DNA of 64,000 bases, taken from assembly GCF_028290435.1 (NCBI RefSeq), contig NZ_JAQGJV010000015.1, positions 1 to 64,000 on the forward strand. Reading direction: 5' to 3'. Shown piece after piece: positions 34,060 to 50,837 of this stretch; the first letter of the stretch is position 1; each line of letters starts with the position of its first letter. This DNA is from Devosia sp. (GTDB taxonomy: Bacteria > Pseudomonadota > Alphaproteobacteria > Rhizobiales > Devosiaceae). The translations under genes and the position numbers were made by a program. A model generated the notes under the pieces. It had not been told where the DNA came from. It did not search any database and worked only from the letters and a program-made list of their open reading frames with translations.

Positions 34060-35967
34060 ATGCATCCCGTCTGGTACGGACTCTTGGCAAATCTGGCAGT
34101 GGTGACGATTTTCGTCTCCAGCTGGGCCTATATACAGGCCATGTTCGACCGCTGGTCGCCGTGGGTGCGCGCCCTTGCGCTGGGAACGCTGTTCGGCATT
34201 GGCGCAGTGATGGCTATGCTGAGCGCCTTCATGTTGGATGAAGGCGTGTTTATCGACCTGCGGACGACGCTGATTTCGTCGGCGGGATTGTTTGGCGGGC
34301 CGGTGGCGGGATTGACGGCAGCACTGATTGCGGCCGGATATCGGCTCTATATGGGCGGCGCGGGAGCGTGGGGCGGGTGCCTCGGTATCGCGGTGGCCGT
34401 AGGGCTGAGCCTGGCGCTCTATGCCGCGGCGCGCGGGCGCAAATTGCGGCGCCGCGATGTGCTGGTTCTCGCCTTGCTGATAGCGGCGATGGGCATCATC
34501 ATTGTGTTCGTGCTGCCGAGCCAGCATCGCGATGCTGCCCTGGCACAGACAGCGGTGCCAAGCGCCGTGCTGCATTTCATATCGAGCCTGCTGGCGGGGC
34601 TGGCGCTGCTCTATGACGAGCGCCGGCGCATTGCAGTGCGCGAAAACCAGACCTACCGCACCATCATCGAGTCGCTGCCGGACAGCCTCAACGTCAAGGA
34701 TCGCGATGGCCGGTTCATCGCCGCCAATCCGGCGACCGCGGCGCTGATGCATGCCAAAAGCGCGGCCGAACTGATCGGCAAGACCGACGCGGATTTCTAT
34801 GCGCCGCCGGTGGCGAGCCGCTTCCGGCAGGATGAACTGGACGTCATGGCCAGGGGCGTGATGACGAGCATCGAACAGAAACTGCCCGATCTGGACGGCA
34901 ATCCGAAGTGGCTGTCGACGCTCAAGGTGCCGCTGTTCGATGACAGCGGCGCGGCGGCGGGAATCATCACCCTCAATCGCGACGTGACCGAGCGGCGCAA
35001 CCTGGAGCTGGCGCTGGAGCAAAGCCAGCAGCAGTTGTCCTATGCGATGGCGCAGATGGCCGACGGCGTGGCGGTGTTCGACCGCAACGGGATCATGGTG
35101 TTCAGCAACGAGCAATATCGCGACAGCTTTCCACTGACGCGGGATGTGCGCGTGCCGGGCAACCATGTGCGCGATATCTTGCGGGCGTCGGCGCAACGCG
35201 GCGAGCAGACCGTGCTGGAAGTGGATGATCTGGAAGAATGGGTCAATCTGACGGAGGCGGCGCTGTATACGCCCACCGAACATGACGTGCCGTTGGTTGG
35301 CGGACGCTGGGTTCAGTTTCGCACCAGCGCGTCTCCCGACGGGGCGAGCATGGTGGTGGTGTCGGATATCACCAAGATCAAGACGGCGGAGACCAATCTG
35401 CGGGCGCTGACCAACCTGCTGCAGCAGCAGGCGGTGACCGACGGGCTGACCGGGCTGTTGAACCGGCGGGCGTTCGACGAGGCGCTGGAGGGCGAACTGG
35501 CGCGCAGCGCGCGCGACAAGAGCTGGATCAGCCTGTTGCTGATGGATATCGATCGGTTCAAGGCGTTCAACGATCATTATGGCCATCAGGAAGGCGACAC
35601 GTGCCTGCGCGCCGTGAGTGCCGAGTTCAAGCGGGTGCTGAAGCGGTCGAGCGACGTGGCGGCGCGCTATGGCGGCGAGGAATTCGTGGCGATCCTACCC
35701 GATACCGACGAGGACGGGGCGTTCGCCATCGCCGATGAGTTTCTGAAGGGCTTGCGGGCGCTGGGGATGGCCCATGCCGGCAGCGAGAAGGGCATTGTCA
35801 CGGCCAGCATCGGCATTGCGTGCTATCGTCCGGACGAGGATTTGCGCGGGGCGGTAGAGCTGGTGGGGCGGGCCGATCAGGCGCTGTATGGCGCCAAGCT
35901 CGCCGGGCGGGATCGGCTCACGGGCTGGCGCGGCGCACGCGACAAAAGTGCATTGGGCTTCGGGTGA
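34060..35967 (+). CDS. Diguanylate cyclase with 5TM-LYT-like membrane sensor, PAS domains and GGDEF
   Basis: LFGGPVAGLTAALIAAGYRLYMGG; VARYGGEEFVAILPDTD. Confidence 0.92.
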   Translation: MHPVWYGLLANLAVVTIFVSSWAYIQAMFDRWSPWVRALALGTLFGIGAVMAMLSAFMLDEGVFIDLRTTLISSAGLFGGPVAGLTAALIAAGYRLYMGGAGAWGGCLGIAVAVGLSLALYAAARGRKLRRRDVLVLALLIAAMGIIIVFVLPSQHRDAALAQTAVPSAVLHFISSLLAGLALLYDERRRIAVRENQTYRTIIESLPDSLNVKDRDGRFIAANPATAALMHAKSAAELIGKTDADFYAPPVASRFRQDELDVMARGVMTSIEQKLPDLDGNPKWLSTLKVPLFDDSGAAAGIITLNRDVTERRNLELALEQSQQQLSYAMAQMADGVAVFDRNGIMVFSNEQYRDSFPLTRDVRVPGNHVRDILRASAQRGEQTVLEVDDLEEWVNLTEAALYTPTEHDVPLVGGRWVQFRTSASPDGASMVVVSDITKIKTAETNLRALTNLLQQQAVTDGLTGLLNRRAFDEALEGELARSARDKSWISLLLMDIDRFKAFNDHYGHQEGDTCLRAVSAEFKRVLKRSSDVAARYGGEEFVAILPDTDEDGAFAIADEFLKGLRALGMAHAGSEKGIVTASIGIACYRPDEDLRGAVELVGRADQALYGAKLAGRDRLTGWRGARDKSALGFG

Positions 35968-36107
35968 GGGCGGTCTGCAAACGGCGGCTTGCTGCCCTCC
36001 GGTGCTCACGCACTTGAGTACGCTCCGCTCCGGTTCTCGAGGCCCACCGTGTTCGCTTGCGCGGAGCTTCGGTTCGACTCGCTCTGACCCGAAGCGCAAC
36101 GCACTTT
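35945..36107. repeat. Covarying palindromic element family A, copy A1
   Basis: AAAGTGCATTGGGCTTCGGGT (35945-35965) pairs with ACCCGAAGCGCAACGCACTTT (36087-36107); core CCTCCGGTGCTCACGCAC..GTACGCTCCGCTCCGGTTCTCGA. Confidence 0.85.
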
Positions 36108-39896: not shown

Positions 39897-40130
39897 ATGA
39901 GCACTCTGGACAATATTGAAGTGGACATCACCGTCGAGCTCGGCGCGACGACGATGCCGGTGCATCATCTGCTGCGCATGGGCCGCGGTGCGGTGATCGA
40001 GCTGGACACAACCGAGAACGACCCGCTGCGGATTTATGCGAACAATACGCTGGTCGCGCATGGCGAAGTGCGCGTGGATGAGGGGCGGTTGCGGGTTCTC
40101 ATCTCCGAAAAAGTCTACCGCCGCGGCTAG
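39897..40130 (+). CDS. FliN/SpoA (surface presentation) domain protein
   Basis: IEVDITVELGATTMPVHHLLRMGRGAVIELD...VRVDEGRLRVLISE. Confidence 0.88.
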   Translation: MSTLDNIEVDITVELGATTMPVHHLLRMGRGAVIELDTTENDPLRIYANNTLVAHGEVRVDEGRLRVLISEKVYRRG

Positions 40131-40135
40131 GCACA

Positions 40136-40264
40136 TCGATCTTTGGGGGATGCCGGTCTGCAAATGCCGGTCGTCTGCGCTTCCGGTGCTCACGTACCCG
40201 AACGTACGTTCCGCTCCGGTTCTCGACGACCAGCATTTTCGACTCGGCCTGCCCCAAAGCTCGA
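40136..40264. repeat. Covarying palindromic element family A, copy A2
   Basis: CTTTGGGG (40141-40148)/CCCCAAAG (40252-40259); GCCG/CGGC; AAATGC+GGTCGTC / GACGACC+GCATTT; hairpin ACGTAC-CCGAAC-GTACGT. Confidence 0.9.
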
Positions 40265-40403
40265 CGCGCCTGGTGCTGACTGGGACATCCACAATTCTCT
40301 TACGCACTATCTCATCTTAGGCAATTTAACCGCTTGAGGTTACGGATGAGCTTTGCTACATGCCCATCACGCTTCGCCGCAGGGGGAAGCTCTACCATGG
40401 CGT

Positions 40404-40488
40404 GCGGTCGTGGCGGAATTGGTAGACGCGCAGCGTTGAGGTCGCTGTATCGCAAGATGTGGAAGTTCGAGTCTTCTCGACCGCACCA
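40404..40488 (+). tRNA. tRNA-Leu (anticodon GAG)
   Basis: GCGGTCG..CGACCGC acceptor stem, encoded CCA, anticodon arm CAGCG-TTGAGGT-CGCTG, variable arm typical of class II. Confidence 0.95.
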
Positions 40489-48142: not shown

Positions 48143-48564
48143 TCCATATGGTGAAGTTATGCGTCGGCGTATCCAGCATCGAGGAGCTGGAGAGCTATCG
48201 CAATGAGCGGGCGCATTGGTGGGACGCCGATTATGGCGAGGACGTGCATGTACACCGCACCCGGATGATGCCCAAGCGCGCCGCCGAGATGGAGGGGAAA
48301 TCTTCGATCTATTGGGTGATTGCCGGCGTGATCGGGGTGCGGCAGCCGATCTTGCGGCTGGCTCAATACACCGACGGCGAGGGCAAGAATTACTGCGACA
48401 TCATTATGAGCCCCGACATGGTGCGGACGGTGCCGTATCCGAAGCGGCCGGTCCAGGGCTGGCGCTACCTGCCGCCAGCCGATGCGCCGCCGGACCTGGC
48501 GGCGAACGGCAATGAAGGGGCGGAAGAGATTGCGCGGGACTTGGCTCGGCTGGGGCTGATTTAG
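48139..48564 (+). CDS. DUF1489 family protein
   Basis: MIHMVKLCVGVSSIEELESYRNERAHWWDADYGEDVHVHRTRMMPKRA; overlaps GST stop by 4 nt. Confidence 0.8.
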   Translation: MIHMVKLCVGVSSIEELESYRNERAHWWDADYGEDVHVHRTRMMPKRAAEMEGKSSIYWVIAGVIGVRQPILRLAQYTDGEGKNYCDIIMSPDMVRTVPYPKRPVQGWRYLPPADAPPDLAANGNEGAEEIARDLARLGLI

Positions 48565-48705
48565 GACCCGTCGCCAGTCAGCTGATGCCGGTCTGCAAAT
48601 GCCGGTTCTCTGCGCTTCCGGTCCTCACGTACCGACGTACGCTCCGGTCCGGTTCTCGAGAACCAACATTTTCGACTCGGCCTGAGCTGACTGGCAACGG
48701 GTCCT
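48563..48705. repeat. Covarying palindromic element family A, copy A3
   Basis: AGGACCCGTCGCCAGTCAGCT (48563-48583)/AGCTGACTGGCAACGGGTCCT (48685-48705), one mismatch; GGTTCTC/GAGAACC; hairpin CGTAC-CGAC-GTACG. Confidence 0.92.
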
Positions 48706-48862
48706 GCGGTCGCAGCTCCTTCTCGCCAAGCGGCGCGAAGGGGCCGTGGTCAAGGCCGATATTTGATCGTTGCCCCGCCTTCGCGGGGATGATGTTAAGG
48801 CGCTGTTAACCATAACGGCCTTGTCTGCAAGGCAAGGAATATTCCGTGATTTGGGGATAGCG

Positions 48863-49723
48863 ATGGGGCGTCAAGGCGCGCATGTCATTGTGGTGGGAAA
48901 CGAAAAAGGCGGGTCGGGCAAGTCGACCACCGCGTTCCATCTGGCCATTTATCTGAGCTATCAGGGGCACCGGGTCGCTACGATCGACGCGGACAGCCGG
49001 CAGCAGACCTTCACCCACTATGTGCGCAACCGGCGCAGTTGGGCCAAGGAAAAAGGGCTGGCGGTGCCGACGCCGCGGCATTTCCACCTGCCATCGGCCT
49101 GGGGCGACTCGGTCAAGGAAAACCAGAAGGCCGAATTCGACGTATTCCGCCGTTCAGTGACCGAGGTCGAGGACAATGTCGATTTCCTCGTCATCGATAC
49201 GCCAGGCTTCGACACCAATCTGACGCGGCTGGCGCATTGCATGGCCGATACGCTGCTGACCCCGGTCAATGATAGCCTGATCGACCTCAACGTGCTGGCG
49301 CGGATCGATCCGAGCGGGGACGGTCCGGTCGAAGCCAGCCATTATTCGCGGCTGGTGCAGCGCGCTCGCGCGGAGCGGCTGGCGATGGATGGCAAGACCA
49401 TCGACTGGGTGCTGGTGCGTAATCGCATTTCCATGCTGGCCTCGCGCAATGCCAAGCAGGTGCATGCGACGATGGAGCGGATCGCAGAGCGGTTCGGCTG
49501 CCGGGTTGCCGATGGCATTGCCGAGCGGATGATTTTCCGCTCGCTGTTTGCCACGGGGATGACGGTGTTCGATCCGCTGGATGGCGATCTGATGGGCGGG
49601 CCGTCCTCGGTGTCCCATATCACGGCGCGCAACGAGTATCGCGACCTGGTGGCGGCGATGCACCTGCCGATCATCAAGCCCAAGGCGGACCTGCCGGCCG
49701 AGCCGATGCTTCTATCCGCATAA
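48863..49723 (+). CDS. mipZ: Division-plane positioning ATPase MipZ (ParA superfamily), copy 1
   Basis: HVIVVGNEKGGSGKSTTAFHLAIYL; FLVIDTPGFDTNLTRLAHCMADTLLTPVNDSLIDLNVL. Confidence 0.92.
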   Translation: MGRQGAHVIVVGNEKGGSGKSTTAFHLAIYLSYQGHRVATIDADSRQQTFTHYVRNRRSWAKEKGLAVPTPRHFHLPSAWGDSVKENQKAEFDVFRRSVTEVEDNVDFLVIDTPGFDTNLTRLAHCMADTLLTPVNDSLIDLNVLARIDPSGDGPVEASHYSRLVQRARAERLAMDGKTIDWVLVRNRISMLASRNAKQVHATMERIAERFGCRVADGIAERMIFRSLFATGMTVFDPLDGDLMGGPSSVSHITARNEYRDLVAAMHLPIIKPKADLPAEPMLLSA

Positions 49724-49730
49724 GTCCCTG

Positions 49731-49874
49731 AGAGACCGTTTGGAAACTCTACTTTGGCGGCCATCTGCCGCGATTTTCTCCGCTTCCGGTGCTCACGTAC
49801 CAAACGTACGCTGCGCTCCGGTTCTCGAAAACCACGGCAGCTGACTCACCAAAGCGAGTTTTCAAACAGCCTCT
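49731..49874. repeat. Covarying palindromic element family A, copy A4
   Basis: AGAGACCGTTTGGAAACTC/GAGTTTTCAAACAGCCTCT; CTGCCGCGATTTTC/GAAAACCACGGCAG; hairpin CGTAC-CAAAC-GTACG. Confidence 0.9.
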
Positions 49875-49946
49875 AAGCGGTTTGCCGCCCCTTGTATGCG
49901 ACGGGGGAAGCGGCAACACTCCGCGCCGAGTGATTTGGGGTGTCGG

Positions 49947-50837
49947 ATGACGCGGAACGGGGCGCATGTCATTGTCGTGGGCAATGAGAAGGGTGGGTCG
50001 GGCAAGTCCACGACCGCTTTTCATCTGGCCGTTTACCTACTGCACCAGGGCCATACGGTCGCTACCATGGATGTGGATAGCCGGCAGCAGACGCTGACGC
50101 ACTACGTGCGTAACCGCCGCGACTGGGCCCGGAACAAGGGCCTGACGCTGCTGCATCCCATTCATTATCACCTGCCGCTGGCACGCGGGGATTCCATAAA
50201 GGAAAACCAGGGCGCCGAGTTCGACCTGTTCCGGCAGGCGATCGGGGACGTCGAGCATGAGGTGGATTTCCTCATCATCGATACGCCGGGTTTCGACACG
50301 CATATGACGCGGCTAGCGCATTGCCTGGCCGATACGCTGGTGACGCCGGTCAATGACAGCCTGATCGATATCAACGTGATGGCCCATATCGATCCGGTCA
50401 GCGGCGAACCGACCGAGATGAGCCATTATGCGCGGCTGGTGCAGCGGGCGCGTTCGGAGCGGATGGCGGTCGATGGCCAAAGCATCGACTGGGTGCTGGT
50501 GCGCAACCGCATTTCCATGTTGTCGTCGCGCAATACGCGGCAGGTGCAGACGCTGCTGGAGCGAATCGCGGCGCGGCTGGGGTGTCGGGTAGTGGACGGC
50601 ATCGCCGAGCGGGTGATTTTTCGCTCGCTGTTTCCGACGGGAATGACCGTGTTCGATACCCTTGATGACGAATTGCTGGGCGGGTTGCCCTCAATGTCGC
50701 ATATGAGCGCGCGGCAGGAATATCGCACTCTGGTGGCGGCGCTGCATTTGCCGATGCGCAAGCCGGGGCGGGCCGTAGATCTGACGGGCGATTCGGATTT
50801 GCAGGGCTTTGAAGAAATGCTGGGCAGCGAAATCTAG
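49947..50837 (+). CDS. MipZ/ParA-superfamily ATPase, copy 2 (tandem paralog)
   Basis: AHVIVVGNEKGGSGKSTTAFHLAVYLLHQGHTVATMDVDSRQQTLTHYVRNRRDW; co-linear with copy 1. Confidence 0.92.
   Translation: MTRNGAHVIVVGNEKGGSGKSTTAFHLAVYLLHQGHTVATMDVDSRQQTLTHYVRNRRDWARNKGLTLLHPIHYHLPLARGDSIKENQGAEFDLFRQAIGDVEHEVDFLIIDTPGFDTHMTRLAHCLADTLVTPVNDSLIDINVMAHIDPVSGEPTEMSHYARLVQRARSERMAVDGQSIDWVLVRNRISMLSSRNTRQVQTLLERIAARLGCRVVDGIAERVIFRSLFPTGMTVFDTLDDELLGGLPSMSHMSARQEYRTLVAALHLPMRKPGRAVDLTGDSDLQGFEEMLGSEI

What the first reader, a model, noticed from the sequence alone, without database searches (positions are those of the whole stretch)
48563..48705. Copy A3: 21-bp outer stem that includes the stop codon of the DUF1489 gene
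AGGACCCGTCGCCAGTCAGCT begins with the last two bases of the TAG stop and pairs with AGCTGACTGGCAACGGGTCCT with one C-A mismatch. This is the best-preserved arm pair, so this copy may be the youngest or the most constrained.
Basis: seen in the sequence. Interest (0 to 1): 0.7.

Follow-up and report, generated by a model that had tools for sequence, protein, structure and literature searches.

The report
Stop-codon-seated mobile hairpin repeat
The feature is one of about 49 copies in this genome of a long DNA hairpin that lands right on gene stop codons; its tip is nearly the same in distantly related alphaproteobacteria while its stem sequence differs from copy to copy yet stays paired, which makes it a mobile repeat of a kind I could not match to a described family or enzyme.

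Summary
In detail: 48563-48583 and 48685-48705 form a 21-bp stem with one C-A mismatch, and the stem starts inside the DUF1489 TAG stop. The whole ~141-bp unit (48564-48704) folds far better than shuffles (z -7.8). It is one of ~49 genomic copies of a dispersed hairpin family, also found in other alphaproteobacteria, with a conserved ~47-nt cap and variable but complementary arms (687 double-change cells, 179 when shuffled). In the closest relative five orthologous sites are clean empty sites: the unit inserts at a TA in the gene's own stop, and NEITHER arm is in the empty site. A3's 5' arm recurs (17-19 of 21) at unrelated loci. Complementarity ends at the first base of the stop. So the arms arrive with the element: insertion yes, inverted copying of the target no. 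New: the 3' foot covaries with the stop codon (TAG 35, TGA 7, TAA 2, one cross); neighbouring copies share orientation (40 of 42); the sense strand shows no G-U excess, so pairing looks DNA-level. No Y1 (REP), IS630 or reverse-transcriptase gene was found in the own genome. Best reading: a non-autonomous, cap-recognised DNA hairpin with unknown mobiliser.

The parts
48562..48564 (+). TAG stop codon of the DUF1489 gene; TA 48562-48563 is the likely target and left TA of the element
   Evidence: Read directly. The stop position is conserved in congeners without the element. TA at both ends in the empty-site comparisons of sister copies.
48564..48704 (+). Inserted hairpin unit, copy A3 (~141 bp)
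   Evidence: Best match of model R1 in the genome, 167 bits; boundaries inferred from the empty sites of sister copies.
48563..48583 (+). 5' outer arm (element-borne; shared 17-19 of 21 with copies at unrelated loci)
48685..48705 (+). 3' outer arm; its foot is complementary to AG of the stop
   Evidence: foot/stop covariation across 122 copies
48612..48658 (+). Conserved cap GCGCTTCCGGTCCTCACGTACCGACGTACGCTCCGGTCCGGTTCTCG
   Evidence: Invariant or nearly invariant in the family alignment; cap pattern found in many alphaproteobacterial genera
48705..48706 (+). Right flanking TG, where many sister copies have TA
40126..40278 (+). Second copy of the same type in the window, also starting at a TAG stop
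   Evidence: 162.5 bits; absent at the orthologous site in G003
35943..36091 (+). Third, diverged copy with a nested insert in its 3' arm
   Evidence: 74.8 bits
49729..49880 (+). Copy with the same cap but a different stem subfamily (B type), after the MipZ-like gene
   Evidence: 89.4 bits; sequence read

Best explanation
A3 is one copy of a non-autonomous, REP-like mobile hairpin. Shown: a ~141-bp unit is present after the stop codon of DUF1489 here and absent in 23 congeners; sister copies inserted at a TA of the stop, leaving TA at both ends; the unit has a fixed cap and arms that change sequence in pairs; copies are polar within a chromosome region. Inferred: the unit moves as a folded single DNA strand recognised through the conserved cap by an enzyme supplied in trans. 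It enters the strand that is exposed at gene ends by both transcription and lagging-strand synthesis. The arms carry no fixed sequence but must pair, out to the stop codon, so they drift freely as Watson-Crick pairs.
For: About 49 copies in the own genome, 0 to ~43 in congeners. Eighteen G000 copy sites located in G003, five of them clean empty sites (L040, L044, L047, L056, L057) with TA at the junction. Covariation: 93.9% of cells paired against 77.8% shuffled, 687 double-change cells against 179, score 0.408 against 0.119, all slid controls at or below 0.071. Orthologous copies: 39 double Watson-Crick changes against 16 single changes. Stop/foot covariation. Orientation: 40 of 42 neighbouring copies agree, against 53% for genes 4-15 kb apart; flank GC skew positive in element orientation for 114 and 124 of 138 copies, control 43-46% of gene ends; copy by copy in two complete genomes. 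Mesorhizobium AR07: 32 of 40 neighbours agree, 20 of 5000 shuffles as high. Cap shared across alphaproteobacteria with unrelated arms.
Against: No mobilising enzyme was found: Y1 transposase absent from 24 genus genomes, IS630-type and RVT_1 absent from the own genome and G003, no recurrent neighbour gene in 80 loci. If the top strand is the folded one, G-T mismatches should outnumber A-C, but the reverse holds (48 against 138; 42 against 80 without four hot columns). GC skew is weak in AR07, so the link to replication direction is not proven there. The preference for stop codons is stronger than a TA target alone should give.
Confidence: 0.55

Rival explanations
1. A 3'-untranslated RNA element: the sense transcript folds into a long hairpin rooted in the stop codon and acts on ribosome release, mRNA 3'-end stability or termination; selection on the RNA keeps the arms paired and the element on the sense strand.
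For: In 117 congener copies with parsed stems, 64 start at the stop of the upstream same-strand gene (49 at one of two adjacent positions), and 52 against 11 copies abut only a sense or only an antisense stop. The stop codon itself takes part in the covarying stem. Sense small-RNA reads with a similar cap sequence are reported in Thalassospira (PMC6413936). E. coli REPs within 15 nt of a stop are reported to stall ribosomes (PMC5082802; PMC12306157).
Against: On the sense strand A-C mismatches outnumber G-U pairs, the opposite of what selection on sense RNA should give. Several copies lie just past a T-rich, terminator-like tract or a tRNA 3' end. No U tract follows A3, so it is not an intrinsic terminator. 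Orientation follows the chromosome region as well as the gene. Copy number is patchy, 0 to ~50 within one genus.
Confidence: 0.25
2. One reading: insertion coupled to inverted copying of the target, so that the 3' arm is a reverse-complement copy of the local sequence after the stop.
For: The 3' arm is absent from relatives, and the 3' foot mirrors the stop codon, including TGA to TCA and TAA to TTA.
Against: The 5' arm is not in the empty sites either. A3's arms recur in copies at other genes and in other species. Coding bases upstream of the stop are not mirrored.
Confidence: 0.05
3. A MITE moved by a DDE transposase with TA target duplication (IS630/Tc1 or Correia-like), the arms being ordinary terminal inverted repeats.
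For: TA at both ends in empty-site comparisons, unit size, no coding capacity.
Against: Terminal sequences are the least conserved part and the middle the most conserved, the reverse of a MITE. TGA-stop copies often have TCA, an inverted and not a direct repeat. No IS630-type transposase in G000, G003 or G006.
Confidence: 0.1
4. An old family kept similar by recombination and hairpin-templated repair more than by movement; arms are homogenised by strand switching during replication.
For: Orthologous copies at the same site with largely replaced but complementary arms (L043/L105, L051/L126, L055/L114).
Against: Clean empty sites show gain or precise loss of whole units.
Confidence: 0.15

Closest known systems
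REP / REPIN elements with TnpA-REP (RAYT) transposases (PMC8266576, PMC3116915)
   Same: Dispersed non-autonomous extragenic hairpins with compensatory changes; a folded single strand is the likely substrate.
   Different: REPs are 20-50 nt with a conserved 5' tetranucleotide, and REPINs are conserved at the ends with a variable middle. Here the unit is ~141 bp, the middle (cap) is conserved and the ends vary; no Y1 transposase in the genus sample.
Br-REP1 and Br-REP2 of Bradyrhizobium (PMC5082802)
   Same: Palindromic repeats in 3'-UTRs of an alphaproteobacterium, patchy among related species.
   Different: Different published consensus, much shorter palindromes, no reported seat on the stop codon or free-arm covariation.
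IS200/IS605 family ends (PMC6006769)
   Same: Subterminal hairpins, lagging-strand-template targeting, polar insertion.
   Different: No transposase gene, no guide tetranucleotide found, TA at both ends.
Correia/NEMIS-type MITEs (own knowledge)
   Same: Size range, TA target, dispersed near genes.
   Different: Those have conserved terminal inverted repeats; here the termini are the variable part.
Integron attC sites (own knowledge)
   Same: Folded strand with variable but complementary arms, seated right after a stop codon.
   Different: attC is conserved at its ends and variable at the tip; here the reverse; no cassette array seen.

Membership tests
REP/REPIN | 20-50 nt palindrome preceded by a conserved tetranucleotide (mostly GTAG) | tested here: not met
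   Unit ~141 bp; the stem begins in the gene's own stop codon, TAG, TAA or TGA, and coding base -1 varies.
REP/REPIN | Y1 (TnpA-REP) transposase in the genome | tested here: not met
   PF01797 in 0 of 24 genus genomes, control genomes positive.
REP/REPIN | Multicopy, extragenic, hairpin-forming | tested here: met
   About 49 copies, mostly at gene ends.
MITE of a DDE IS (IS630, Correia-like) | Conserved terminal inverted repeats | tested here: not met
   Outer pairs show all four Watson-Crick types; the cap is conserved instead.
MITE of a DDE IS (IS630, Correia-like) | TA target duplication | tested here: inconclusive
   TA at both ends in empty-site comparisons, but TA is its own reverse complement and TGA copies often show TCA.
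IS200/IS605-like single-strand insertion | Orientation bias with replication (lagging-strand template) | tested here: inconclusive
   Strong regional polarity and GC-skew match in the genus; origin and terminus not mapped, weak skew in AR07.
Intrinsic terminator | GC hairpin followed by a T tract | tested here: not met
   Sequence after 48705 is GCGGTCGCAG.
Known Rfam RNA families | Score above a family's gathering threshold | tested here: not met
   Only a tRNA at 40404-40485 in the window.
Group II intron / retroelement | Reverse transcriptase in a high-copy genome | tested here: not met
   RVT_1 absent from G000, G003, G006 and G010.

The most novel reading that the evidence does not exclude
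A class-wide family of mobile single-strand DNA hairpins that is inside-out compared with REPs: a fixed cap is the recognition site, arms are free but forced to pair, and the foot is matched to the host gene's own stop codon. It is inserted with a fixed polarity relative to both gene and chromosome region, by an enzyme system not yet described.
Probability: 0.35. Interest if true: 0.85.

Novelty: new variant of a known kind. Interest (0 to 1): 0.62.

Why it matters
If right, a common and apparently overlooked repeat of alphaproteobacteria moves as folded DNA without any of the transposases known for such hairpins, and it uses stop codons as landing sites. Stem arms that change in pairs, without the G-U intermediates expected of RNA, give a natural test of whether DNA hairpins themselves are selected or repaired in bacterial chromosomes. 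The same copies bear on how a hairpin rooted in a stop codon affects translation termination.

Tried and rejected
Inverted copying of target: rejected. REP/RAYT: no Y1 transposase. IS630: absent from own genome and G003. Retroelement: RVT_1 absent from own genome, G003, G006, G010. Linked gene: no protein family recurs beside copies across genera. Phage origin: no match in 50,697 phage records. Intrinsic terminator: no T tract. 'Youngest copy': A3 ties with at least 14 others. The tRNA-end case L126, where the 3' arm seemed to mirror the tRNA CCA end, was first read as target copying, but part of that arm (GGTGCTGACTGG) also follows other copies, so it was dropped as evidence. An early reading that nearly all copies sit on sense stops was corrected by a stricter count: 52 sense-only, 11 antisense-only, 12 both, 42 neither. 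Proof of replichore polarity by GC skew failed: sampling was noisy in G006 and G010, and skew is weak in AR07. In AR07 a best two-arc split of orientations explains 36 of 41 copies, but shuffles reach 33.5 on average and up to 37, so only the neighbour-agreement test is used. A literature search by cap sequence found only the Thalassospira small-RNA paper as a plausible hit.

Full report
Observation. A48563 and G48564 are the last two bases of the DUF1489 stop. The full region folds into one long hairpin with z -7.8 against shuffles. No Rfam family matches it.

It is one copy of a family. DNA and covariance-model searches of the genome that holds the window find about 49 loci, five of them on the window's contig, four inside the window. 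All share a ~47-nt cap (GCGCTTCCGGT[C/G]CTCACGTAC-loop-GTACGCTCCG[G/C]TCCGGTTCTCG). The arms are variable and complementary. A second stem subfamily uses the same cap. Congeners have from none to about 43 copies.

Wider range. Near full-length matches occur on Shinella and Sphingobium plasmids. Small alphaproteobacterial genomes carry a similar cap on quite different, still complementary arms. The window's genus is probably Devosia: a Devosia MAG site (L281) shows the same sequence as a G003 site.

Covariation. On 101 aligned copies, 93.9% of pair cells are standard pairs (77.8% when partners are shuffled), 687 cells carry changes on both sides (179 shuffled), and the covariation score is 0.408 against 0.119, while sliding the partner by one to three columns drops it to 0.071 or less. 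Between orthologous copies of G000 and G003 (and one G008/G015 pair) there are 39 double Watson-Crick changes against 16 single changes. G-U pairs are rare on the sense strand, 48 against 138 A-C mismatches, or 42 against 80 without four hot columns, where column composition alone predicts a ratio near 1.1. The alignment was fitted to the model, which favours G-U over A-C, so the bias runs against the result.

Insertion. Upstream flanks of G000 copies were searched in G003 (~91% identical flanks) and 18 orthologous sites were found. Five are clean empty sites: L044 (CGC-TA-GGTCTTG), L056 (CTC-TA-AGCC), L040 (AAC-TA-GACC), L057 and L047. The occupied sites read ..TA-[unit]-TA.. or a one- or two-base variant of it. 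Neither arm is in the empty site. Many other G003 sites hold unrelated palindromes instead. About ten sites are shared, several with altered but complementary arms. Loss is possible at single sites; net gain is the simpler reading given 0-50 copies per congener.

A3's own site. In 23 congeners the region after DUF1489 has no model match, and A3's arms match there no better than a shuffled arm. The stop position is conserved there as TAG, TGA or TAA, so the stop is the gene's own. G003 has a different palindrome there, so A3 itself has no clean empty site in the closest relative.

Stop codon. Across 122 distinct copies, in the genus and in named alphaproteobacteria, the complement of the 3' foot equals the gene's stop codon 44 times (25.3 expected, maximum 34 in 5000 shuffles). 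Where the foot reads as a stop complement, the cases are TAG-TAG 35, TGA-TGA 7, TAA-TAA 2 and one cross. The third stop base is paired in 113 copies, the second in 86, the first in 57, and coding bases -1 to -6 at chance. In the genus, 64 of 117 copies start at a sense-strand stop, and 52 against 11 abut only a sense or only an antisense stop. Two readings remain open: the element may supply the last bases of the stop on insertion (G003 empty site TAA against G000 TAG at L056, and TAA against TGA at L047), or the foot may co-evolve with the stop.

Polarity. Neighbouring copies on a contig agree in orientation in 40 of 42 cases, against 53% for genes 4-15 kb apart, and flank GC skew is positive in element orientation (copy by copy). 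In Mesorhizobium AR07, 32 of 40 neighbours agree (24.9 expected; 20 of 5000 shuffles as high). A link to replication direction is likely in the genus but not shown, because origin and terminus were not mapped and skew is weak in AR07.

Mobiliser. Not found: Y1 transposase, IS630-type DDE and reverse transcriptase are missing from the own genome and G003, no linked gene recurs, and phages have no match.

Mechanism. Shown: dispersed unit, presence/absence at stops, paired evolution of arms, polarity, fixed cap. Inferred: movement as a folded single DNA strand, cap recognition, an enzyme in trans, entry at exposed coding strand near gene ends. The A-C excess over G-T on the top strand is unexplained; it would fit folding of the bottom strand, or repair of G-T mismatches in a folded top strand.

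Known relatives. It works like REP/REPIN and IS200/IS605 hairpins (PMC8266576, PMC3116915, PMC6006769) but is inside-out, conserved at the tip and free at the ends, and it fails the size, tetranucleotide and Y1 tests. It is not filed as a REP. Small-RNA reads TTCGGTGCTCACGTACTTTTAG and TGCGCTCCGATGCGCGTGAACC, reported as microRNAs at more than one locus of Thalassospira lucentensis (PMC6413936), resemble this cap and suggest it can be transcribed in the sense direction; their loci were not examined.

Limits. Copies are related, so shuffle counts are not probabilities. Genes were called by open-frame length, not by a gene finder. Most papers of subscription journals were not searchable, so an earlier description may exist.

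Noticed in passing
G003 loci L134-L151 (orthologous gene ends): Sites lacking this element often carry other long palindromes (for example CCCGCGGACTTGATCCGCGGGCC and GTCATTCCCGCGAAGGCGGGAAC types), so gene 3' ends are shared landing sites for several hairpin families.
   Followed up: partly
window 49729-49880: A copy with the same cap but a different stem subfamily (GGAAACTCTACTTTGGCGGCCATCTG...), following the MipZ-like gene; over ten such copies in the genome.
   Followed up: partly
window 35943-36091; L028, L019, L087: A nested ~20-nt insert (CGC..GCGCGGACCTTCGGTTCG) in the 3' arm at the same place in several copies; L102 and L132 carry a similar insert in the 5' arm.
   Followed up: no
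window ~40258-40275; L042, L045, L113, L126, L154, L205: The motif GTGCTGACTG or a close variant follows several copies directly on the 3' side, at unrelated genes.
   Followed up: no
L036 (G000 C46:113800): Tandem duplication of the outer 5' arm (TAGGTCCGTCGATCTT), which moves the element 15-16 nt away from the stop.
   Followed up: no
L051 (G000) and L126 (G003): Orthologous copies right after a tRNA CCA end with entirely different yet complementary arms at ~92% flank identity.
   Followed up: partly
L043/L105, L055/L114, L166, L168, L195: Copies near or directly after T-rich tracts that look like intrinsic-terminator tails instead of a stop codon.
   Followed up: partly
window 48862-49723 and 49896-50837: Two adjacent MipZ/ParA-like paralogues downstream of DUF1489.
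   Followed up: no
PMC6413936, Table 5: Small-RNA reads resembling the cap were reported as bacterial microRNAs in Thalassospira; they may be fragments of this repeat.
   Followed up: partly
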